A DNA stretch of 64,000 bases from Chrysemys picta bellii (Eukaryota; Chordata; Testudines; Emydidae). The position numbers and the translations under genes were made by a program. Below are positions 6,906 through 54,110 of this stretch, piece by piece (the first letter of the stretch is position 1; every line of letters starts with the position of its first letter). The DNA lies in contig NC_088798.1 in assembly GCF_011386835.1 (NCBI RefSeq), positions 2,976,001 through 3,040,000 on the forward strand, read 5' to 3'. The notes under the pieces are model-generated. The model had not been told where the DNA came from. It saw only the letters and a program-made list of their open reading frames with translations, and ran no database searches.

Positions 6906-7894
6906 CTGGTCCAGGCCCATGTCAACATCAGCCCTGCGGCTGCAGCCGGGGACGGACACGTCTTCAGCCCCTCTCACACAGCCCACGCTCACCGTCTCCA
7001 GCCGCTCACTGTGTCCCACCTGCACCCCTGTAGCCAGCCCAGAGCGTTCCTCGCGTCGCCCCGTCTGACGCACACTGGAGAGGGTTTGGTCCCTTTGGTT
7101 TGTCTCTGCTCCTGCCCCACCCAGCCGCGGGGCCAGAGTTTCTCATTTCTGCAGATCACTCCTTTGATCCCCCACACAAGGCGACTGCAACTTTTTTATC
7201 GAGTTCGTCTTTGCCTCCGTCTGACCACGACGGAGCCATTTCCTGCCCTTTCCCACGTGAGCACCTGGCCAGTTCACCGCGCTGCTGAGCGGCCAGTCTC
7301 CATAACGTTCCCATCTCCCGTTGGAGGAACAATCCGCTTTCCCTCCACTCCCTGCAGCCCCAGGCCGAAGACACACACCGCCGAGCGGCCCTGCTCCCCA
7401 CTAGCCCATCTGCCGAACTGACTAGCACCTTTCACCAGTCCCGCGCTTAGAACAACCTTGTGAATTCAACCCAGTGGAAACCGGAAAAGCAGATTTATCC
7501 AGAACTACCTCAGCAGGTGCCGGCTGGGCCCACTGTCCAGCAACTCCTAGATTCAGGCAGACCCAGCCCCTCCTCTGACGGGCCCCCCACTCCCTTCCTG
7601 GCTCCCCGGCCCGAACAGCGCTATTCCCTGCGTCTCCCCCTCCAGCACAGAGAACCTGGGGGGGGGGGAACGCTGCAGGTGCGTTCCCAGCTCTGCCACG
7701 GGACATTGGGCAAGGCTCCCCCTCTGTCCAGCACCAAATTTCCTCCTCCCTGGGGTGGCGGCAGGCTGCGGGGGTGCTGTGATGAAAGGGGAAAGGTGTG
7801 GGTGCTATCGCTCTTCCCCCAACCAGCCAGGGGCCCTCACATTTCTGTCCACCTGAGACAGACCATAGCAATGGCAGGCCCAGGATAGGAGGGG
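6906..7894. other. Intron 2 sequence without recognised genes
   Basis: Unique GC-moderate sequence with a short MIR-like core near 7690 ('cccagctctgccacgggacattgggcaag'). I see no exon, RNA gene or complete mobile element. Confidence 0.5.
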
Positions 7895-10525
7895 ACGCCC
7901 CTTAGAACAGGACGGGACGGGACACCCTGCAGAACACCCCAGGAACAGGCCCAGGAAGGGATGGGGTACACCACAGAACAGGCCAGGGACACCCCACGGA
8001 ACAGGCGGGGGATGCCCCATGGAATGGGACTGGGACGGGACGCCATGCGGAATGGAGCACCTCAAGGAATGGGACTGGGACAGGACGCCTTGCAGAACAG
8101 AGCACCCCACGGAACAGGCAAGGGACGGGACGCCATGCAGAAAGGAGCACCCCACGGAACAGGCGGGGGACGGGATGCCATCCAGTCCTGTTCCGTGGGG
8201 TGCGTCCCGTCCCCCGGCCGTTCCGTGGGGTGCTCCGTTCTGCATGGCGTCCCGTCCCCTGCCCGTTCCGTGGGGTGCTCCATTCTGCATGGCGTCCCGT
8301 CCCCTGCCTGTTCCGTGGGGTGCTCCGTTCTGCATGGCGTCCCGTCCCCTGCCCGTTCCGTGGGGTGCTCCGTTCTGCATGGCGTCCTGTCCCAGTCCCG
8401 TTCCGGGAGCACCCCACGGAACAGGACTGGGACGGGACGCCATGCAGAATGCAGCACCCCAAGGAACGGGACTGGGACAGGACGCCATGCAGAACGGGGC
8501 ACCCCACGGAACGGCCGGGGGACGGGACGCCATGCAGAACGGGGCACCCCACGGAACAGGTGGGGGACGGGATGCCATGCAGAACGGAGCACCCCACGGA
8601 ACAGGACTGGGACGGGACGCCATGCAGAATGCAGCACCCCAAGGAACGGGACTGGGACAGGACGCCATGCAGAACGGAGCACCCCACGGAACGGGCAGGG
8701 GACGGGACACCATGCAGAACGGAGCACCCCACGGAACGGCCGGGGGACGGGACGCCATGCAGAACGGAGCACCCCACGGAACAGGCAAGGGACGGGACGC
8801 CATGCAGAACGGGGCACCCCACGGAACAGGCGGGGGACGGGACGCCTTGCAGAACAGAGCACCCCACGGAACAGGCAAGGGACGGGACGCCATGCAGAAA
8901 GGAGCACCCCACGGAACAGGCAAGGGACGGGACGCCATGCAGAAAGGAGCACCCCGTGGAACGGGCGGGGGACGGGACGCCATGCAGAACGGGGCACCCC
9001 ACGGAACAGGCAAGGGACGGGACGCCATGCAGAAAGGAGCACCCCACGGAACAGGCAAGGGACGGGACGCCATGCAGAAAGGAGCACCCCGTGGAACGGG
9101 CGGGGGACGGGACGCCATGCAGAACGGGGCACCCCACGGAACAGGCGGGGGACGGGATGCCATGCAGAACGGAGCACCCCATGGAACGGGCAAGGGACAG
9201 GACGCCATGCAGAACGGGGCACCCCACGGAATGGCCGGGGGACAGGACGCCATGCAGAACGGGGCACCCCACGGAACAGGTGGGGGACAAGATGCCATGC
9301 AGAACGGGGCACCCCACGGAACAGGCGGGGGACGGGACGCCTTGCAGAACAGAGCACCCCACGGAACAGGCAAGGGACGGGACGCCATGCAGAAAGGAGC
9401 ACCCCACGGAACAGGCAAGGGACGGGACGCCATGCAGAAAGGAGCACCCCGTGGAACGGGCGGGGGACGGGACGCCATGCAGAACGGGGCACCCCACGGA
9501 ACAGGCAAGGGACGGGACGCCATGCAGAAAGGAGCACCCCACGGAACAGGCAAGGGACGGGACGCCATGCAGAAAGGAGCACCCCGTGGAACGGGCGGGG
9601 GACGGGACGCCATGCAGAACGGGGCACCCCACGGAACAGGCGGGGGACGGGATGCCATGCAGAACGGAGCACCCCATGGAACGGGCAAGGGACGGGACGC
9701 CATGCAGAACGGGGCACCCCACGGAACGGCCGGGGGACAGGACGCCATGCAGAACGGGGCACCCCACGGAACAGGTGGGGGACAAGATGCCATGCAGAAC
9801 GGAGCACCCCAAGGAACGGGACTGGGACAGGACGCCATGCAGAACGGAGCACCCCACGGAACGGGCAGGGGACGGGACGCCATGCAGAACGGAGCACCCC
9901 ACGGAACGGCCGGGGGACGGGACGCCATGCAGAACGGGGCACCCCACGGAACAGGCGGGGGACGGGATGCCATGCAGAACGGAGCACCCCACGGAACAGG
10001 CAAGAGACGGGACGCCATGCAGAACGGGGCACCCCACGGAACAGGCGGGGGACGGGACGCCATGCAGAACGGGGCACCCCACGGAACGGCCGGGGGACAG
10101 GACGCCATGCAGAACGGGGCACCCCACGGAACAGGTGGGGGACAAGATGCCATGCAGAACGGAGCACCCCAAGGAACGGGACTGGGACAGGACGCCATGC
10201 AGAACGGAGCACCCCACGGAACGGGCAGGGGACGGGACGCCATGCAGAACGGAGCACCCCACGGAACGGGCAAGGGACGGGACGCCATGCAGAACGGGGC
10301 ACCCCACGGAACGGCCGGGGGACGGGACGCCATGCAGAACGGGGCACCCCACGGAACAGGCGGGGGACGGGATGCCATGCAGAACGGAGCACCCCACGGA
10401 ACAGGCAAGAGACGGGACGCCATGCAGAACGGGGCACCCCACGGAACAGGCGGGGGACGGGACGCCATGCAGAACGGGGCACCCCACGGAACGGGCGGGG
10501 GATGGGACGCCATGCAGAACGGGGC
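7895..10525. repeat. 45-bp minisatellite with higher-order duplications
   Basis: Roughly 58 tandem 45-bp units. The core is 'gacgggacgccatgcagaac' then 'ggggcaccccacggaacagg' with a G-rich spacer. The first 250 bases are degenerate. Blocks of units are duplicated: the variant 'cttgcagaacagagc' recurs at 8846 and 9341 (495 bp, 11 units apart), and 'caaggaacgggactgggac' recurs 360 bp (8 units) apart near 9809 and 10169. The last unit is split by the LTR element and resumes at 18747. Because 45 is a multiple of three and the unit has no stop, frames of 800-940 codons are open on both strands. They are artefacts. Confidence 0.95.
8185..8407 (-). repeat. Inverted block inside the 45-bp minisatellite
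   Basis: About five units here run in the opposite orientation ('tgttccgtggggtgctccgt' then 'tctgcatggcgtcccgtccc'). Sharp switches occur at about 8184 ('gccatccag|tcctgttcc') and 8407 ('cccgttccg|ggagcacc'). The block can pair with either flank. Confidence 0.93.
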
Positions 10526-11051: not shown

Positions 11052-12392
11052 CTACCCCCGTTCCCATGGATGCCCCCGCATCCCTCCAGTTCCTTGGTGG
11101 GAGTTACACCAGGCCCCTTCCGTTCCACGCCCCCCCTTAGGTCGGGGGTGCTTGATGGCACTCGCAGTTCGCATGTGGGAAGGTTTATGCGGCCTGTGCC
11201 CTTTTCCCACCCCCATACCTCTGGGGTTCCAACTGGGCTGTGGTCTTCTCCCAGCGCTCCAGTCTGGAGGTCTGTGCTTTGGGCTCTCTTGGTTTAGAGC
11301 CGCCCTTTTAACCTTGGCCACCCTCTGGAAAGGATCCTTTATGCTGGGCAAGGGTCCTAAAGCTGTTTTCCCCTTGTCCCAGGCCTTCCTCCCCCTCTGA
11401 CAGGGGTCACAGGATCCGCAGTACTGTCGGACAGTAACAAAGACCCCAGGCCAGTAAAAGCTCCGTAGCAGCCTCTGCTGGGTACGCCAGGTTCCCTGGT
11501 GCCCTGAGAGGGGAATGTCATGGGCCCGGCACAGCAGCTGGCGGCGATACTTCTGGGGTACCACCAGCTGCCTCCTGATCCCCCCTGACTCCATTTTCCC
11601 TGGGGGAGCCCATTCTCGGTACAGGAACCCCTTCTCCCACAGGAACCTTTTCCGGCCACCTCGTTCCATGGTCTGTACCGCATTGAGGTCGGCCAGGTCC
11701 CTTATTTTCCGCAAGGAGGGGTCTCTCTGTAGCTCGGCCTGGAACTCAGCAGCTGGGACAGGGATGGCCACCTGCTCTTTCTCGCCCGCTGGGTCCGAAG
11801 CTGCAGCCTCCCTGAGCCGCGTCCCTGGGCGTTCCCTCCCCACCAGGTTAGGGTCCTGCGCCTCAGGCAAGGCACCCCCCCCAAGGCCAGGGCGCAGGGC
11901 CCCTCGCCGGCTCTGACTGCGGGTCACAACCAGTGCCTTTTGGGGGTTGCTTGGCCAGTTCTCCAGGTCCCCCCCCATCAATACCTCAGTGGGCAAATAC
12001 GGGTGTACCCCCACATCCTTGGGGCCCTCCTTGGCCCCCCACTTCAGGTGTACCCTTGCCACGGGCACTTTGACTGGTGTTCCGCCCACCCCCGTCAGGG
12101 TCAGGTAGGAATTGGGCACCACCTGATCTGGGGCCACCACCTCGGGCCGGGCCAGCGTCACCTCTGCGCCCGTATCCCAGTATCCATTGACCTTCCTCCC
12201 ATCCACCTCCAGGGGAACAAGGTACTCTCTCCGGAGGGACAGCCCCGCGCCCACCGTATAAACCAAAAACCCTGAGTCTGGAGCATCCAGCCCCCTAGAG
12301 GAGCTGGCCTGGGGCCCTTCTCTCTCTTGAGCAGTTGATAAGCTGCCAGCCCCTCTTGCGTGAGAAGCCTGCCCCTCGTCCGTCTGGGCCTC
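11052..12392 (-). pseudogene. Copy 1 gag end, protease and integrase zinc region (3' part of the interrupted ORF)
   Basis: This is the downstream part of the copy 1 gag-pol frame, cut off from its start by the nested insertion. It begins at the target duplication and stays open for about 445 codons. It holds a retropepsin-type active site (Tyr-Trp-Asp-Thr-Gly-Ala-Glu) and, further on, an integrase-type His-His-Cys-Cys zinc region ('AHDIPLSGHQG' and 'YCGSCDPC'). After 'IKDPFQRVA' the expected catalytic core is replaced by a low-complexity Lys/Arg/Pro-rich tail, as in copy 2. The reverse transcriptase region is absent. Substitutions relative to copy 2 are few (for example Asp for Asn in the zinc motif). 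Confidence 0.85.
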
Positions 12393-12865
12393 TGTGACGA
12401 ACTGGGACTGTTCTTGCTGGGGTGTGTGAATGCTGACAGGGGAGTGTGACTAGGATGGTCTGCATCGGGGGATGGGAGCCGGCCCAAGGGAACATACCTG
12501 AGCTTGTAACATGAGAACCCAGGAGGGGGTTGGAGGTCAGATGACTCCGGGGCCCGGGAAACTGAACAAAGGCGGTGGGAGGGGTCGCTAAAGGCAGAGT
12601 GCGGGAAGAGGGCTGGAAGCGAGCTGGAGAGATGGCTGGGAGACAGAGATGGCTCTGACCCCCCAAGGGGGGTGGGCTGGCATGCCCTGGGACCCCAAGC
12701 TGGACCTAACTGAGGGGGGCCCTGTTGTCTGTGCCTGCAAGACCTGTCTTGGACTGTATTCCTGTCATCCAAATAAACCTTCTGCTTTACTGGCTGGCTG
12801 AGAGTCATGGTGAATCGCAGGAAGCCGGGGGTGCAGGGCCCTGAGTCCCCCAATACTCCGTGACA
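12393..12865 (+). repeat. 5' LTR of copy 2
   Basis: A 473-bp LTR from TGTGACGAACTGG to CCGTGACA with AATAAA at 12772-12777. It differs from the copy 1 LTR by scattered substitutions and 13 bp of length, so the two copies belong to slightly different sublineages. Confidence 0.95.
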
Positions 12866-12867
12866 AC

Positions 12868-12885
12868 TGGTGGCAGCGGCGGGAT
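12868..12885 (+). other. Primer binding site of copy 2 (tRNA-Leu type)
   Basis: TGGTGGCAGCGGCGGGAT starts two bases after the LTR. It is complementary, with one mismatch, to the 3' end of a vertebrate tRNA-Leu (AAG/TAG isoacceptor) plus CCA, recalled from memory. Confidence 0.75.
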
Positions 12886-13205
12886 CTACTGCACCCCGTA
12901 GACGGCGCTTCCTGCAGTAAGTGACTGGGGAGCAGTAAAACGAAGGGGGATTGACGGGGACCAGGCACGCTGAAGAGTGGGAGAGAGACGGTTATTACCC
13001 CTGGGAGTGTGTGACCAGCGAGAAGGACTTTTGCAGTAACAGGGTCCCCCGGGGGGATCGCAGCGAGTGGTCCCAGGGGCGGAGGAGTCTGCAGCTCGAC
13101 CCTGGCAGAGAGGTGGTGACCTCGAGAAGGGCTGGCACACTAGGGGTCCCCCTGGGAACTGTGGGGAGCTGTGAGCACACAGGCCGGTGAGTGGCCAGCA
13201 GGAAG
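12886..13205 (+). other. Leader of copy 2 between primer site and gag
   Basis: A 320-bp untranslated leader. It would be expected to hold dimerisation and packaging signals, but I cannot point to a specific structure. It matches the leader of copy 1 (17947-18266) with few differences. Confidence 0.6.
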
Positions 13206-15947
13206 ATGTATGCCCAGCGGCTTAAGAGCGACCTGGTGGAGCTGTGCAAGCAGAGGCGGCTGCGCATTGGGAGGCTCACCAAAGAACAGCTCATTGCCCA
13301 GCTGGAGGCGGAAGATCGCGCGAATGAACCGATCCCTGTGTCTCAGGGAAGCAGCCTGGCAAATGCAGCGCAGGCACCAGTGTCTGTCCCAGCTGGGAGT
13401 GGTCAGCCGGCTGCTGAGGGCTTCCCGAGACCCCTCCTTCCTATGCCTAGGGGAAGGGTGGGGAGGAGCCCAGCAAATACCGAAGGCGCCGTGACCCCCC
13501 CGGCCAGCAGGGGGTCCCCCCGGCGAAGCTCGCCGGCCAGCAGAGGATCCTCCCGGCGACGTTCAGCATCCGGGGAGCGGAATTGGCTGGAATGGGAGAA
13601 AGAGCTAAAACTGAGGGAGCTGGAGGATCGTGAACAACAGAGACAGCATGAAGAGAGACAGCGTCAGCATGAACGGGAGGAGAAAGAGAGACAGCATCAG
13701 CGTGAACGGGAGGAGAATGAGAGACAGAGACAGGAGAATGAGAGACAGAGACAGGAGAATGAGAGACAGCATCAGCGTGAACTGGAACTGGCGAGATTGA
13801 AGGGCAGCGAACCCCCGGCTGCGGTGAGTGAGGGGGGACCCAGGACTGCACGGAGCTTTGATAAGTGCATCATGGCCCCATACAAGGAGGGGGAGGACAT
13901 GGATGACTTCCTGGAGGCCTTTGAGACGGCCTGCGAGCTGCACCGGGTGGATCCCGCGGACAGACTCCGGGTCCTTACCCCCTTACTGGACCCCAAATCC
14001 GTGGCATTGTACCGCCAACTGGGAGAGGCAGAGAAAGGGGACTACGAACTATTCAAAAAGGCCCTGCTACGTGAGTTTGGGCTGACTCCTGAGATGTACC
14101 GGGAAAGGTTCCGGAGTCAAGATAAAACCCCTGAGATCTCATATCTGCAACTAGCCGTCCGCATGGAAAGATACGCCAGCAAGTGGGCTGGCGGGGCCCA
14201 GACGAAGGAGGACCTGATTAAACTGCTGGTACTGGAGCAACTGTATGAGCGGTGCCCATCCGACCTGAGGCTGTGGTTGGTGGACAGAAAGCCAGAGAAC
14301 CCGCGACACGCCGGGCAGCTGGCTGATGAGTTTGTAAAGAGCCGGTCAGGGGGTGGCAGGGAGGAGCCCCAAAGGAACAGGCCCGCCGTGATGCAGAGAG
14401 AGAGTCACCCTGGGACCTCCCAAAGAGGGAATATGGGGAATCCCCTCCCACGGGGAATGCCCAGCGTCAGGGACAACCGACCGGCTCGAGGGGACCCACA
14501 GGACATGAGCTGCTATTACTGCGGCCGAAGAGGCCACGTTCGGGCCCAGTGCCCCAAGCTCAAGGACAGACTGAGCAGACCGAACCCGCATAGGGTTAAC
14601 TTGGTAGAGGCCCAGACGGACGAGGGGCAGGCTTCTCACGCAAGAGGGGCTGGCAGCTTATCAACTGCTCAAGAGAGAGAAGGGCCCCAGGCCAGCTCCT
14701 CTAGGGGGCTGGATGCCCCAGACTCAGGGTTTTTGGTTTATACGGTGGGCGCGGGGCTGTCCCTCCGGAGAGAGTACCTTGTTCCCCTGGAGGTGGATGG
14801 GAGGAAGGTCAATGGATACTGGGATACGGGCGCAGAGGTGACGCTGGCCCGGCCCGAGGTGGTGGCCCCAGATCAGGTGGTGCCCAACTCCTACCTGACC
14901 CTGACGGGGGTGGGCGGAACACCAGTCAAAGTGCCCGTGGCAAGGGTACACCTGAAGTGGGGGGCCAAGGAGGGCCCCAAGGATGTGGGGGTACACCCGT
15001 ATTTGCCCACTGAGGTATTGATGGGGGGGGACCTGGAGAACTGGCCAAGCAACCCCCAAAAGGCACTGGTTGTGACCCGCAGTCAGAGCCGGCGAGGGGC
15101 CCTGCGCCCTGGCCTTGGGGGGGGTGCCTTGCCTGAGGCGCAGGACCCTAACCTGGTGGGGAGGGAACGCCCAGGGACACGGCTCAAGGAGGCTGCAGCT
15201 TCAGACCCAGCGGGCGAGAAAGAGCAGGTGGCCATCCCTGTCCCAGCTGCTGAGTTCCAGGCCGAGTTACAGAGAGACCCCTCCTTGCGGAAGATAAGGG
15301 ACCTGGCCGACCTCAATGCGGTACAGACCATGGGACGAGGTGGCCGGAAAAGATTCCTGTGGGAGAAGGGGTTCCTGTACCGAGAATGGGCTCCCCCAGG
15401 GAAAATGGAGTCAGGGGGGATCAGGAGGCAGCTGGTGGTACCCCAGAAGTATCGCCGCCAGCTGCTGTGCCGGGCCCATGACATTCCCCTCTCAGGGCAC
15501 CAGGGAACCTGGCGTACCCAGCAGAGGCTGCTACGGAGCTTTTACTGGCCTGGGGTCTTTGTTACTGTCCGACAGTACTGCGGATCCTGTAACCCCTGTC
15601 AGAGGGGGAGGAAGGCCTGGGACAAGGGGAAAACAGCTTTAGGACCCTTGCCCAGCATAAAGGATCCTTTCCGGAGGGTGGCCAAGGTTAAAAGGGCGGC
15701 TCTAAACCAAGAGAGCCCAAAGCACAGACCTCCAGACTGGAGCGCTGGGAGAAGACCACAGCCCAGTTGGAACCCCAGAGGTATGGGGGTGGGGAAAGGG
15801 CACAGGCCGCATAAACCTTCCCACATGCGAACTGCGAGTGCCATCAAGCACCCCCGACCTAAGGGGGGGCGTGGAACGGAAGGGGCCTGGTGTAACTCCC
15901 ACCAAGGAACTGGAGGGATGCGGGGGCATCCATGGGAACGGGGGTAG
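13206..15947 (+). CDS. Gag-protease-integrase-zinc ORF of copy 2 (RT-lacking retrotransposon)
   Basis: One uninterrupted frame of 913 codons. I start it at the ATG at 13206; the open frame begins at a GTG at 13191 directly after a TGA. From the N-terminus: a short basic helical region; a Ser/Pro/Arg-rich stretch; a Glu/Arg/Gln/His-rich coiled coil (about residues 125-200); a retroviral-type capsid region related to SCAN/gypsy gag (about 215-385); one CCHC zinc knuckle (Cys-X2-Cys-X4-His-X4-Cys, near residue 436); a retropepsin-like domain with Asp-Thr-Gly-Ala near residue 540; and an integrase-type His-His-Cys-Cys region from about residue 758. The frame then leaves homology into a Pro/Lys/Arg-rich tail. 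Reverse transcriptase, RNase H and the integrase DDE core are not found. It probably yields capsid and protease but must borrow a polymerase. Confidence 0.9.
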   Translation: MYAQRLKSDLVELCKQRRLRIGRLTKEQLIAQLEAEDRANEPIPVSQGSSLANAAQAPVSVPAGSGQPAAEGFPRPLLPMPRGRVGRSPANTEGAVTPPASRGSPRRSSPASRGSSRRRSASGERNWLEWEKELKLRELEDREQQRQHEERQRQHEREEKERQHQREREENERQRQENERQRQENERQHQRELELARLKGSEPPAAVSEGGPRTARSFDKCIMAPYKEGEDMDDFLEAFETACELHRVDPADRLRVLTPLLDPKSVALYRQLGEAEKGDYELFKKALLREFGLTPEMYRERFRSQDKTPEISYLQLAVRMERYASKWAGGAQTKEDLIKLLVLEQLYERCPSDLRLWLVDRKPENPRHAGQLADEFVKSRSGGGREEPQRNRPAVMQRESHPGTSQRGNMGNPLPRGMPSVRDNRPARGDPQDMSCYYCGRRGHVRAQCPKLKDRLSRPNPHRVNLVEAQTDEGQASHARGAGSLSTAQEREGPQASSSRGLDAPDSGFLVYTVGAGLSLRREYLVPLEVDGRKVNGYWDTGAEVTLARPEVVAPDQVVPNSYLTLTGVGGTPVKVPVARVHLKWGAKEGPKDVGVHPYLPTEVLMGGDLENWPSNPQKALVVTRSQSRRGALRPGLGGGALPEAQDPNLVGRERPGTRLKEAAASDPAGEKEQVAIPVPAAEFQAELQRDPSLRKIRDLADLNAVQTMGRGGRKRFLWEKGFLYREWAPPGKMESGGIRRQLVVPQKYRRQLLCRAHDIPLSGHQGTWRTQQRLLRSFYWPGVFVTVRQYCGSCNPCQRGRKAWDKGKTALGPLPSIKDPFRRVAKVKRAALNQESPKHRPPDWSAGRRPQPSWNPRGMGVGKGHRPHKPSHMRTASAIKHPRPKGGRGTEGAWCNSHQGTGGMRGHPWERG

Positions 15948-16000
15948 GTTCGAACTTCCCCAGGTCACTGGCTAAAGTGACCCCGCTCAGTTCGGTCTCG

Positions 16001-16013
16001 AAGGGGGGAGAGA
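16001..16013 (+). other. Polypurine tract of copy 2
   Basis: AAGGGGGGAGAGA immediately before the 3' LTR, identical to the tract in copy 1. Confidence 0.88.
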
Positions 16014-16486
16014 TGTGACGAACTGGGACTGTTCTTGCTGGGGTGTGTGAATGCTGACAGGGGAGTGTGACTAGGATGGTCTGCATCGGGGGATGGGAGC
16101 CGGCCCAAGGGAACATACCTGAGCTTGTAACATGAGAACCCAGGAGGGGGTTGGAGGTCAGATGACTCCGGGGCCCGGGAAACTGAACAAAGGCGGTGGG
16201 AGGGGTCGCTAAAGGCAGAGTGCGGGAAGAGGGCTGGAAGCGAGCTGGAGAGATGGCTGGGAGACAGAGATGGCTCTGACCCCCCAAGGGGGGTGGGCTG
16301 GCATGCCCTGGGACCCCAAGCTGGACCTAACTGAGGGGGGCCCTGTTGTCTGTGCCTGCAAGACCTGTCTTGGACTGTATTCCTGTCATCCAAATAAACC
16401 TTCTGCTTTACTGGCTGGCTGAGAGTCATGGTGAATCGCAGGAAGCCGGGGGTGCAGGGCCCTGAGTCCCCCAATACTCCGTGACA
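16014..16486 (+). repeat. 3' LTR of copy 2
   Basis: 473 bp, same ends as the 5' LTR and read as identical over its length, with AATAAA at 16393-16398. It is followed by the GCCTC target duplication and then by the gag of copy 1 in reverse. Confidence 0.95.
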
Positions 16487-17946
16487 GCCTCTACCAAGTT
16501 AACCCTATGCGGGTTCGGTCTGCTCAGTCTGTCCTTGAGCTTGGGGCACTGGGCCCGAACGTGGCCTCTTCGGCCGCAGTAATAGCAGCTCATGTCCTGT
16601 GGGTCCCCTCGAGCCGGTCGGTTGTCCCTGACGCTGGGCATTCCCCGTGGGAGGGGATTCCCCATATTCCCTCTTTGGGAGGTCCCAGGGTGACTCTCTC
16701 TCTGCATCGCGGCGGGCCTGTTCCTTTGGGGCTCCTCCCTGCCACCCCCTGACCGGCTCTTTACAAACTCATCAGCCAGCTGCCCGGCGTGTCGCGGGTT
16801 CTCTGGCTTTCTGTCCACCAACCACAGCCTCAGGTCGGATGGGCACCGCTCATACAGTTGCTCCAGTACCAGCAGTTTAATCAGGTCCTCCTTCGTCTGG
16901 GCCCCACCAGCCCACTTGCTGGCGTATCTTTCCATGCGGACGGCTAGTTGCAAATATGAGATCTCAGGGGTTTTATCTTGACCCCGGAACCTTTCCCGGT
17001 ACATCTCAGGAGTCAGCCCAAACTCACGTAGCAGGGCCTTTTTGAATAGTTCGTAGTCCCCTTTCTCTGCCTCTCCCAGTTGGCGGTACAATGCCACGGA
17101 TTTGGGGTCCAGTAAGGGGGTAAGGACCCGGAGTCTGTCCGCGGGATCCACCCGGTGCAGCTCGCAGGCCGTCTCAAAGGCCTCCAGGAAGTCATCCATG
17201 TCCTCCCCCTCCTTGTATGGGGCCATGATGCACTTATCAAAGCTCCGTGCAGTCCTGGGTCCCCCCTCACTCACCGCAGCCGGGGGTTCGCTGCCCCTCA
17301 GTCTCGCCAGTTCCAGTTCATGCTGACGCTGTCTCTCATTCTCCTGTCTCTGTCTCTCTTCATGCTGTCTTTGTCTCTCATTCTCCTCCCGTTCACGCTG
17401 ATGCTGTCTCTCTTTCTCCTCCCGTTCATGCTGACGCTGTCTCTCTTCACGCTGATGCTGTCTCTCATTCTCCTCCCGTTCATGCTGACGCTGTCTCTCT
17501 TCATGCTGTCTCTGTTGTTCACGATCCTCCAGCTCCCTCAGTTTTAGCTCTTTCTCCCATTCCAGCCAATTCCGCTCCCCGGATGCCGAACGTCGCCGGG
17601 AGGCTCCTCTGCTGGCCGGCGGGCTTCGCCGGGGGGACCCCCTGCTGGCCGGGGGGATCACGGCGCCTTCGGTATTTGCTGGGCTCCTCCCCACCCTTCC
17701 CCTAGGCATAGGAAGGAGGGGTCTCGGGAAGCCCTCAGCAGCCGGCTGACCACTCCCAGCTGGGACAGACACTGGTGCCTGCGCTGCATTTGCCAGGCTG
17801 CTTCCCTGAGACACAGGGATCAGTTCATTCGCGCGATCTTCCGCCTCCAGCTGGGCAATGAGCTGTTCTTTGGTGAGCCTCCCAATGCGCAGCCGCCTCT
17901 GCTTGCACAGCTCCACCAGGTCGCTCTTAAGCCGCTTGGCATACAT
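16487..17946 (-). pseudogene. Copy 1 gag (5' part of the interrupted ORF)
   Basis: This is the N-terminal part of the copy 1 gag on the minus strand, from the ATG at 17946 (an in-frame GTG after a stop lies 15 bases upstream) to the nested insertion at a Val-Glu-Ala position just after the CCHC knuckle. It has the same order as copy 2: basic N-terminus, Ser/Pro/Arg-rich region, Glu/Arg/Gln/His coiled coil, capsid region, zinc knuckle (Cys-Tyr-Tyr-Cys...Cys). The coiled coil is longer than in copy 2 through in-frame gain of Arg-Gln-His-Glu-type repeats. Left alone, the frame runs on into the inserted LTR and ends at 16426. It is otherwise free of stops, so the damage comes only from the insertion. 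Confidence 0.88.
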
Positions 17947-18286: not shown

Positions 18287-18746
18287 TGTTGCGGATTGTG
18301 GGGGAGTTAGGGCCCTGCACCCCCGGCTTCCTGCGATTCACCATGACTCTCAGCCAGCCAGTAAAGCAGAAGGTTTATTTGGATGACAGGAATACAGTCC
18401 AAGACAGGTCTTGCAGGCACAGACAACAGGGCCCCCCTCAGTTAGGTCCAGCTTGGGGTCCCAGGGCATCCCAGCCCACCCCCCTCGGGGGGTCAGAGCC
18501 ATCTCTGCCTCCCAGCCATCTCTCCAGCCTGCTTCCCGCACTCTGCCTTCAGCGACCCCTCCCACAGCCTTTGTTCAGTTTCCGGGCCCCGGAGTCATCT
18601 GACCTCCAACCCCCTCCTGGGTTCTCATGTTACAAGCTCAGGTATGTTCCCTTGGGCCGGCTCCCATCCCCCGATGCAGACCATCCTAGTCACACTCCCC
18701 TGTCAGCATTCACACACCACAGTAAGAACAGTCCCAGTTCGTCACA
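18287..18746 (-). repeat. 5' LTR of copy 1
   Basis: 460 bp, TGTGACG...CCGCAACA on the minus strand, with the same length and sequence as the 3' LTR of this copy. It is followed outward by the GGGGC target duplication and the rest of the minisatellite unit. Confidence 0.95.
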
Positions 18747-18815
18747 GGGGCACCCCACGGAACGGGCGGGGGATGGGACGCCATGCAGAACGGGGCACCC
18801 CACGGAACGGCCCAG
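18747..18815. repeat. Distal remnant of the 45-bp minisatellite
   Basis: About one and a half units ('ggggcaccccacggaacggg', then 'gatgggacgccatgcagaac') continue the array exactly where the LTR element interrupts it, then fade into unique sequence. Confidence 0.93.
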
Positions 18816-52405: not shown

Positions 52406-53125
52406 GGTGGGGGCAAGCAGGTGGCAGGGCCCCCAAACAGGCCCTTTTGTCGTCCTTGGGGGGCTTTTTTGGGGGGCTGGTTTGGGATGCAAGGGGGGGG
52501 CAGGCCAGGAAACTCCTTCAGCGGCTTAACAGCACTGGCCGACCCCGGTGCTGCAAACAGCCCCAGTGCTGGGGCCGTGCTCGCTGCGGTCCCGCCCCCC
52601 CGGGTCCCCTCCAAGAGCCCCCCCAAGACCCCCCCAAGGGCCCCTCCAGGAGTCCCACCCCCAGCCCCCACCGAGAGCCCTCCATGGCTGGGTGGGACGG
52701 GGCCCTGCAAAGCCCCCGCTGGGGATTTACCCCTGATGCCAGGATCGGGCTCTTCTCCCTCGGGGGGTTCGGAGCCGGCTCTCCCCAGCCGAGCGGGGTG
52801 GGGCGGACACATTCACGCCCTGGCAGTCGTTTGGATGAGGGTGGCTCTGGGCGCCGCCTGGCAAGGGCAGGGCCCGTCCTGCCCACGTGGTTCTAAGAGG
52901 GCCCCCAGGCCGCCCCGGAGCAGAGCCAGGCCCCCAGAGCAGGGCCCAGCTGAGAGCTGCTCCCCCTGCCCCCCCATTGCAGCCCAGGCTCAGGCTAGTC
53001 ATGGCTGAGGCTCTCCCCGCAGCGCAAAGCAGGGAGGCCTCGGCCTGCTGGGGGGGCGCTGGGGGGCTGCAGACCCCAGAGCTAGGATAGTGGGGGGTTA
53101 TTGGTGGAGTGCATCAGCAAAGGTG
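52406..53125. other. Intergenic sequence, no gene recognised
   Basis: GC-rich, partly C-run sequence with overlapping compositional frames only. Confidence 0.4.
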
Positions 53126-53127
53126 GG

Positions 53128-54110
53128 AGAGCCCAGAGGTCGGGGATCAGGGGGGCTGCGGGTCGGGAGTGAGGGGCATTGGCAGAGCTGGGGGTGGAGA
53201 GCCCAGGGCTGGGCTAGCAGGGGGCTGCGGGTCGGGAGTGAGGGGCACCGGCAGAGCTGAGGGGGGGCAGGGCTGGGCTAGCAGGGGGCTGCGGGTCGGG
53301 AGTGAGGGGCACCGGCAGAGCTGTGGGGGAGCCCAGGGCTGGGCTAGCAGGGGGCTGCGGGTCGGGAGTGAGGGGCACCGGCAGAACTGAGGGGTGGAGA
53401 GCCCAGGGCTGGGCTAGCAGGGGGCTGCGGGTCGGGAGTGAGGGGCACCGGCAGAGCTGGGGGGGACAGGGCTGGGCTAGCAGGGGGCTGCGGGTCGGCA
53501 GTGAGGGGCACCGGCAGAGCTGGGGTGAGGGGAGCCAGGCTGGGCTAGCAGGGGCTGCGGGTCGGGAGTGAGGGGCACCGGCAGAGCTGGGGGAGCCCAG
53601 GGCTGGGCTAGCAGGGGCTGCGGGTCGGGAGTGAGGGGCACCGGCAGAGCTGGGGGGGGCAGGGCTGGGCTAGCAGGGGGCTGCGGGTCGGGAGTGAGGG
53701 GCACCGGCAGAGCTGTGGGTGGGGGAGCCCAGGGCTGGGCTAGCAGGGGCTGCGGGTCGGGAGTGAGGGGCACTGGCAGAGCTGAGGGGTGCCCAGGGCT
53801 GGGCTAGCAGGGGCTGCGGGTCGGGAGTGAGGGGCACTGGCAGAACTGAGGGGTGCCCAGGGCTGGGCGAGCAGGGGGCTGCGGGTTGGCAGTGAGGGGC
53901 ACCGGCAGAGCTGTGGGTGGGGGAGCCCAGGGCTGGGCTAGCAGGGGGCTGCGGGTCGGGAGTGAGGGGCACCGGCAGAGCTGGGGGGATGCCCAGGGCT
54001 GGGCTAGCAGGGGCTGCGGGTCGGGAGTGAGGGGCATTGGCAGAGCTGAGGGGTGCCCAGGGCTGGGCTAGCGGGGGCTGCAGGTCAGGATCGAGGGCAC
54101 CGGCAGGGGG
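53128..54110. repeat. About 60-68-bp minisatellite
   Basis: About fifteen units centred on 'ggctgggctagcagggggct' then 'gcgggtcgggagtgaggggc' and 'accggcagagctg', with a variable G-rich spacer. Both strands have open frames through it by periodicity only. Confidence 0.93.

What the first reader, a model, noticed from the sequence alone, without database searches (positions are those of the whole stretch)
13206..15947. A recently mobile retrotransposon family that encodes gag, protease and an integrase zinc region but no polymerase
Both copies lose homology at the same place, after the integrase His-His-Cys-Cys region, and both go directly from protease to that region with no reverse transcriptase or RNase H between. 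The shared structure means the deleted form itself has been copied. The 913-codon frame is free of stops, which hints at selection or extreme youth. It would be a non-autonomous element that supplies its own capsid and protease and borrows a polymerase and integrase in trans. It is the best candidate here for something not yet described.
Basis: partly seen in the sequence, partly recalled or inferred. Interest (0 to 1): 0.75.

Follow-up and report, generated by a model that had tools for sequence, protein, structure and literature searches.

The report
Polymerase-less turtle retrotransposon spreading through partners
The turtle genome holds many fresh copies of a jumping element that makes its own capsid but no copying enzyme, so it most likely spreads by using the enzymes of a full-length relative with which it also swaps gene segments.

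Summary
The ORF at 13206-15947 (913 codons) lies in a complete LTR element (E1, 12393-16486; identical 473-bp LTRs; TSD GCCTC), nested in an antisense second copy (E2; identical 460-bp LTRs; TSD GGGGC). Neither has an integrase core, reverse transcriptase (RT) or RNase H.

Of the other 39, 38 are open and all 39 share one deletion junction. Of 37 with both LTRs, 33 have exact 5-bp TSDs and 25 have identical LTR pairs. So the RT-less form itself is copied.

One premise is wrong: this is a Gmr1-like element with normal order PR-IN-RT-RH, so nothing is missing between protease and integrase, and a single deletion after the integrase zinc domain suffices.

A recently active full-length family shares the primer site, polypurine tract, leader (about 98%) and capsid (98-99%), but not the 3' part of the coding region or the LTR U3. 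A predicted tortoise protein has the same junction. I conclude: a semi-autonomous lineage, mobilised in trans (inferred), that recombines with its partner. New variant of a known kind.

The parts
12388..12392 (.). E1 target-site duplication GCCTC, left copy
12393..12865 (+). E1 5' LTR, 473 bp, TGTGAC...GTGACA, AATAAA inside
   Evidence: identical to the 3' LTR over 473/473
12868..12885 (+). E1 primer-binding site TGGTGGCAGCGGCGGGAT (fits a tRNA-Leu 3' end; tRNA recalled, not tested)
   Evidence: its first 12 bases occur in 39 of 39 fetched copies and in the two full elements
13206..15947 (+). single ORF, 913 codons: gag, protease, integrase zinc domain, 3' tail
14088..14345 (+). SCAN-related C-terminal lobe of the capsid
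   Evidence: Pfam PF02023 4.4e-12; PDB SCAN chains; capsid-like fold
14508..14558 (+). zinc knuckle CCHC of the nucleocapsid
   Evidence: Pfam PF00098 7.5e-5
14706..15098 (+). putative aspartic protease with DTG motif
   Evidence: alignment A2; weak RVP match; weak viral protease matches, E 0.7-0.9; fold model failed
15438..15611 (+). integrase N-terminal H2C2 zinc domain
   Evidence: Pfam PF17921 3.4e-18
15683..15684 (+). deletion junction: integrase homology stops just before the catalytic core, the 3' tail begins
15684..15947 (+). 3' tail read in frame; found downstream of RNase H in the Macrochelys relative P0055
16000..16013 (+). polypurine tract GAAGGGGGGAGAGA
   Evidence: in 39 of 39 fetched copies
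16014..16486 (+). E1 3' LTR, 473 bp
16487..16491 (.). E1 target-site duplication GCCTC, right copy
18747..18751 (.). E2 target-site duplication GGGGC
18287..18746 (-). E2 5' LTR, 460 bp
   Evidence: identical to its 3' LTR
16487..17946 (-). E2 first half of the ORF (gag), open; interrupted by the E1 insertion
11052..12392 (-). E2 second half of the ORF (protease, integrase zinc domain, tail), open
   Evidence: 444/444 residues identical to Chrysemys protein P0043
10526..10985 (-). E2 3' LTR, 460 bp
10521..10525 (.). E2 target-site duplication GGGGC; E2 sits inside a 45-bp minisatellite

Best explanation
E1 and E2 belong to a semi-autonomous lineage of a Gmr1-like Ty3/gypsy retrotransposon. One internal deletion, from the start of the integrase catalytic core through RT and RNase H, left a single ORF for gag, protease and the integrase zinc domain fused to a 3' tail. 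The RNA keeps what is needed in cis: LTRs, primer site, leader, polypurine tract. Its own Gag, or the nearly identical Gag of a full-length partner, packages it. The partner supplies RT, RNase H and integrase in trans; the copy is reverse transcribed and integrated with a 5-bp duplication. Because both RNAs can share a particle, template switching exchanges segments: E1 is 96-99% like the partner in leader and gag (87-93% in the variable charged repeat), but has an older, distinct 3' module. Shown: anatomy, one shared junction, many recent independent insertions, mosaic structure, presence of a recently active full family. Inferred: co-packaging, trans supply, direction of the segment swap.
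For: 40 genome copies of the 2742-bp ORF at 96-100%, E1 included; 38 of the other 39 open, 909-935 codons; same junction in 39 of 39. 33 of 37 exact TSDs, 25 of 37 identical LTR pairs, mean LTR divergence 0.10%. E1 and L009, on different contigs with different TSDs, differ at 5 sites over 4,094 bp, and the L017 and L018 ORFs are identical. dN/dS 0.48 (0.34-0.69) overall, capsid 0.19 (0.06-0.69). At least 107 copies with integrase core, none with stops in the match, open frames of 1003-1664 codons. Two full elements read at their ends: LTR pairs identical 421/421, TSDs ATAGG and CTGTC, same PBS and PPT as E1, leader 97.6 and 98.2%. In 12 of the 107: capsid 97.5-99.4%, nucleocapsid 96.3-97.8%, integrase zinc region 84-85%. 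RT-less zinc regions form one clade 100/99 with a tortoise protein, while protease and nucleocapsid trees reject one RT-less clade.
Against: No direct evidence of trans supply (no particles, RNA or assay). The LTRs of the two full elements share with E1 or E2 only about 80-83% over 152-164 bases of the 3' half and 72-74% over about 86 bases. The 40 copies are the best-scoring of 1630 candidates, so openness and youth are biased upward. The integrase zinc domain shows no clear constraint (dN/dS 0.95, interval 0.27-8.6), and the tortoise protein has lost its second zinc histidine. Gag of E1 against E2 gives 14 nonsynonymous to 5 synonymous changes. No 3' tail was found in the fetched 1.2-kb ends of the two full elements, so they are not the direct parent. 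The tortoise junction is seen only in a predicted protein; its DNA was not seen, so a gene-model artefact is not excluded. A different full family could be the helper.
Confidence: 0.9

Rival explanations
1. Local artefact: only the two window copies share the deletion, through gene conversion, tandem duplication or misassembly.
For: The two copies lie within about 8 kb and one is nested in the other.
Against: 39 further full-length copies across many contigs, 38 of them open; 33 of 37 exact TSDs of varied sequence. E1 and E2 have different LTR variants (13 mismatches, 5 gap runs over 460 aligned bases).
Confidence: 0.01
2. Repeated dead-on-arrival deletions: each RT-less copy arose afresh from a full element during reverse transcription and never serves as a template itself.
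For: Full elements are numerous in the same genome, and gag is nearly identical between the two forms.
Against: 39 of 39 copies share one junction. The zinc region of RT-less elements forms its own clade (100/99). The 12 full loci compared are 12-25% diverged in protease, linker and zinc region, and the two read at their ends show no tail. The closest RT-less pairs differ at 0-5 sites over the ORF.
Confidence: 0.04
3. RT-less copies are mobilised by a different full-length family than the one sampled here.
For: LTR U3 of the two sampled full elements differs from E1, and no tail was found there.
Against: Same PBS and PPT, leader about 98% and capsid 97.5-99.4% identical, both sampled elements with identical LTR pairs.
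Confidence: 0.2
4. The copies are domesticated host genes derived from gag (SCAN-like), with mobility long past.
For: The capsid is under purifying selection, and SCAN domains of vertebrate genes are proposed to come from this kind of gag (PMC4592553 passage).
Against: Copies have LTRs, TSDs and, in 25 of 37, identical LTR pairs: many young insertions, not a fixed gene.
Confidence: 0.02

Closest known systems
Gmr1-like Ty3/gypsy elements (Goodwin and Poulter 2002, cited in PMC3587641; original not read)
   Same: SCAN-related gag, zinc knuckle, DTG protease, integrase zinc domain directly after protease; relatives run IN core then RT then RNase H
   Different: integrase core, RT and RNase H are deleted
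Mouse IAP I-delta-1 (PMC6466679 passage)
   Same: internal deletion gives one fused gag-pol ORF; non-autonomous; source of most new IAP insertions; proteins needed in trans
   Different: endogenous retrovirus, not gypsy; its deletion removes part of gag and pol, whereas here gag is complete
Wheat RLG_Sabrina_SA and RLG_WHAM with partner RLG_Wilma (PMC9744471, sections 2.7 and 3.2 read)
   Same: semi-autonomous Gypsy elements that encode GAG and protease, RT and integrase absent, long co-evolution with a full partner
   Different: plant; INT described as absent, whereas here the zinc domain is kept; the partner there shares little sequence, here leader and capsid are nearly identical through recombination
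TR-GAG elements (PMC8704663 passages)
   Same: non-autonomous LTR element with an intact gag ORF, shown to transpose in Arabidopsis ddm1
   Different: only GAG is encoded; plant; the Arabidopsis case belongs to ATCOPIA63

Membership tests
Gmr1-like Ty3/gypsy | integrase upstream of RT | tested here: met
   In relatives P0047 and P0050: H2C2, then rve, then RVT_1; P0036: integrase C-terminus then RVT_1; P0055: rve then RNase H. In E1 itself only protease then zinc domain can be seen
Gmr1-like Ty3/gypsy | SCAN-related capsid | tested here: met
Gmr1-like Ty3/gypsy | RT falls in the Gmr1 clade of an RT tree | not tested
   E1 has no RT; no reference RT set was loaded
LTR retrotransposon | paired LTRs, PBS, PPT, target-site duplication | tested here: met
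Non-autonomous LTR retrotransposon amplified as such | lacks RT and integrase core, yet many independent young insertions of the same deleted form | tested here: met
Non-autonomous LTR retrotransposon amplified as such | enzymes supplied in trans by a partner | not testable with these tools
   partner family is present and recently active; supply itself is inferred
IAP I-delta-1 | endogenous retrovirus of the IAP group | tested here: not met
   Gmr1-like gypsy protein content
IAP I-delta-1 | deletion creating one fused gag-pol ORF | tested here: met
   913-codon ORF across the junction
TR-GAG | only GAG encoded | tested here: not met
   protease region and integrase zinc domain follow gag in the same frame
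Semi-autonomous GAG-Pro Gypsy (Sabrina/WHAM type) | GAG and protease encoded, RT and integrase absent | tested here: inconclusive
   RT and integrase core absent, but the integrase zinc domain is kept; protease identified mainly by motif and place

The most novel reading that the evidence does not exclude
A long-lived semi-autonomous lineage that survives by 'capsid updating': its 3' module (integrase zinc domain and tail) is old and shared between tortoises and pond turtles, while its leader, gag and at times protease are repeatedly replaced by those of whichever full-length element is active in each host. The retained zinc-domain fusion would act in cis, as reported for the IAP I-delta-1 fusion protein, giving the parasite an advantage over its helper.
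Probability: 0.35. Interest if true: 0.7.

Novelty: new variant of a known kind. Interest (0 to 1): 0.5.

Why it matters
The gag-bearing non-autonomous LTR elements that I found in print come from plants or from mouse retroviruses. Here the RT-less form, a likely helper and the traces of recombination between them are all young and in one sequenced vertebrate genome. This makes it possible to ask what a satellite element must keep (capsid, leader, primer site) and what it may drop, how it follows its helper through evolution, and whether the fusion protein gives it an edge.

Tried and rejected
Protease fold: the AlphaFold2 model of the protease piece failed (mean pLDDT 33), so the protease rests on motif, place and weak matches. 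Genome contigs and viral-contig scans with the zinc-tail piece, and an exact LTR pattern in viral contigs, found nothing. P0053 (frog) served only as a distant outgroup.

Selection on E1 against E2 alone was mixed: protease-to-tail 4 nonsynonymous to 8 synonymous (one-sided p 0.003-0.016 depending on transition bias), gag 14 to 5 (p 0.47), all 18 to 13 (p 0.02-0.18). I rely more on the 39-copy analysis, which used E1 and 38 fetched copies. It left out L047 (open for only 494 codons), and E2 was not in it. There the last 37 codons mix reading frames among copies.

LTR counts use 37 of 39 fetched copies. L022 was left out because its 5' LTR runs off the contig end, and L035 because no 5' LTR was found. 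Counted as no TSD: L013 and L034 (none), L020 (none; its 3' LTR match stops short, so the test there is poor) and L025 (match only at a shifted offset). The script's own tally of 34 includes L025. Five of the 33 TSDs are runs of one base (L014, L021, L024, L028, L037) and weigh less.

Considered and rejected: a deletion between protease and integrase; local gene conversion; a domesticated gene; the sampled full family as direct parent (no tail found, 12-25% different in the 3' module). In one search the low minima come from L055, which is one base out of register before the protease.

Host call: contigs C4, C16 and C17 fit the Chrysemys contig lengths exactly, but C2 (291300265) does not equal the 291303948 given for P0007 and P0043.

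Full report
Anatomy. The ORF at 13206-15947 is open for 913 codons. It lies in a complete element, E1 (12393-16486), with LTRs identical over 473 of 473 bases, a primer site at 12868, a polypurine tract at 16000-16013 and target-site duplication GCCTC. E1 is inserted, in opposite orientation, into E2, an element of the same form that runs from 18746 down to 10526. E2's own LTRs are identical over 460 of 460 bases, and its duplication is GGGGC within a 45-bp minisatellite. The two LTR types differ (13 mismatches and 5 gap runs over 460 aligned bases), while the internal parts differ by 1.0-1.3%. Two separate, recent insertions are therefore shown directly.

One deletion, not two. Turtle relatives carry H2C2, integrase core and then RT, in that order (P0047, P0050; P0036 from the integrase C-terminus on), or core, RNase H and then tail (P0055). 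This is the Gmr1-like order, described as integrase upstream of RT in PMC3587641 and as a Ty1/copia-like order in PMC2774666 (passages read). Homology of four relatives with an integrase core (P0046, P0047, P0050, P0053) ends at 15683, and the tail of P0055 aligns from 15672. So the integrase core, RT and RNase H are missing, by one junction.

The deleted form is a family. One search scored 40 of 1630 candidates in the host genome; all 40, E1 included, match over 2739 or all 2742 query bases at 96-100%. Of the 39 others, 38 are open for 909-935 codons and one for only 494. All 39 have the same protein junction, the same first 12 bases of the primer site, the same polypurine tract and the same poly(A) signal. 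Of 37 with both LTRs, 33 have an exact 5-bp duplication and 25 have identical LTR pairs; mean LTR divergence is 0.10%. E1 and L009 differ at 5 of 4,094 positions at two different genomic sites. These are the best-scoring copies, so the fractions are biased toward young and intact ones.

Host. G000 contigs C4, C16 and C17 have exactly the lengths (156561005, 32458402, 26956848) of the contigs that carry Chrysemys picta bellii proteins P0016, P0028 and P0009; C2 differs slightly from the contig of P0007. The host is therefore most likely the western painted turtle. In the protein set the RT-less junction occurs in three Chrysemys clusters (7, 2 and 14 member sequences, which may count one protein twice) and in one predicted tortoise protein, P0034 of Gopherus evgoodei. 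Of 14 fetched proteins that pass the zinc motif, 9 continue into the integrase core, 4 have the junction and 1 ends.

Age and recombination. In a tree of the 146-residue zinc region the six RT-less rows form one clade (100/99), tortoise included, and pairing the tortoise RT-less protein with a tortoise protein that has the core is rejected (p 0.0025). In the protease tree one RT-less clade is rejected (p 2.7e-7) and the tortoise protein groups with two other tortoise proteins (95/96). The nucleocapsid tree also rejects one clade (p 5e-28). The zinc-tail module thus looks old and of single origin, while the gag-protease part has been exchanged. Horizontal transfer is not excluded.

The partner. 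One search scored 107 of 10289 candidates for H2C2 plus integrase core. All 107 are without stops in the match, in open frames of 1003-1664 codons. In the 12 loci compared, E1 is 97.5-99.4% identical in capsid and 96.3-97.8% in nucleocapsid, but 87.5-88.1% in protease, 75-77% in the linker and 84-85% in the zinc region. The step falls between the 60-base windows that start at 14610 and 14670. Two full elements were read at their ends: primer site and polypurine tract the same as E1, leader 97.6 and 98.2%, gag start 98.5%, charged repeat 87 and 93%, LTR pairs identical over 421 bases with duplications ATAGG and CTGTC. Their LTRs share only the 3' half and a short stretch with E1, and no tail was found in the fetched ends. 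So a recently active full family shares leader and capsid with the RT-less family, and the RT-less 3' module comes from another, older lineage. The direction of the exchange is inferred.

Selection. Mean pairwise dN/dS over E1 and 38 copies is 0.48 (0.34-0.69), capsid 0.19 (0.06-0.69), zinc region 0.95 (0.27-8.6), charged repeat 0.74 (0.38-1.7). The capsid is constrained; for the zinc domain the data do not say.

How it works. Most likely the RT-less RNA is packaged by its own or the partner's Gag, copied by the partner's RT and integrated by the partner's integrase. Precedents: mouse IAP I-delta-1, whose fused gag-pol product helps in cis (PMC6466679 passage); TR-GAG (PMC8704663 passages); wheat Sabrina and WHAM, which encode GAG and protease only (PMC9744471, outline and two sections read).

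Print check. The ten paper searches listed no title or abstract start that describes such an element in turtles; I saw listings only, apart from the papers named here. Passages of PMC4054807, PMC11011659 and PMC11008031 found by term do not mention it. The library lacks most subscription papers, and Repbase could not be searched, so absence from print is not shown.

Noticed in passing
window 7875-10522: A GC-rich 45-bp minisatellite of about 47 units in the main array (8406-10522), with a segment at 8202-8405 inverted relative to the rest; it gives spurious long open frames on both strands. E2 landed in it, and about one and a half units remain on the far side from 18747.
   Followed up: partly
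window 13651-13769 and 17329-17530: The charged coiled repeat of gag differs in repeat number between E1, E2 and the Chrysemys proteins.
   Followed up: partly
window 15834-15947: The last 30-50 codons of the tail are read in different frames in different RT-less copies and proteins (P0043, P0044, P0045; L021, L025, L027), so this end is unlikely to be under coding constraint.
   Followed up: partly
window 53122-54106: A tandem array with 63-64-bp and 200-bp periods; not examined.
   Followed up: no
P0009 and P0038 (Chrysemys), P0005 (Gopherus agassizii): Gene models that fuse gag or integrase pieces of this family to immunoglobulin-like, guanylate-binding or SPRY-type domains (domain names partly recalled from accessions); either annotation artefacts or exonised elements.
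   Followed up: no
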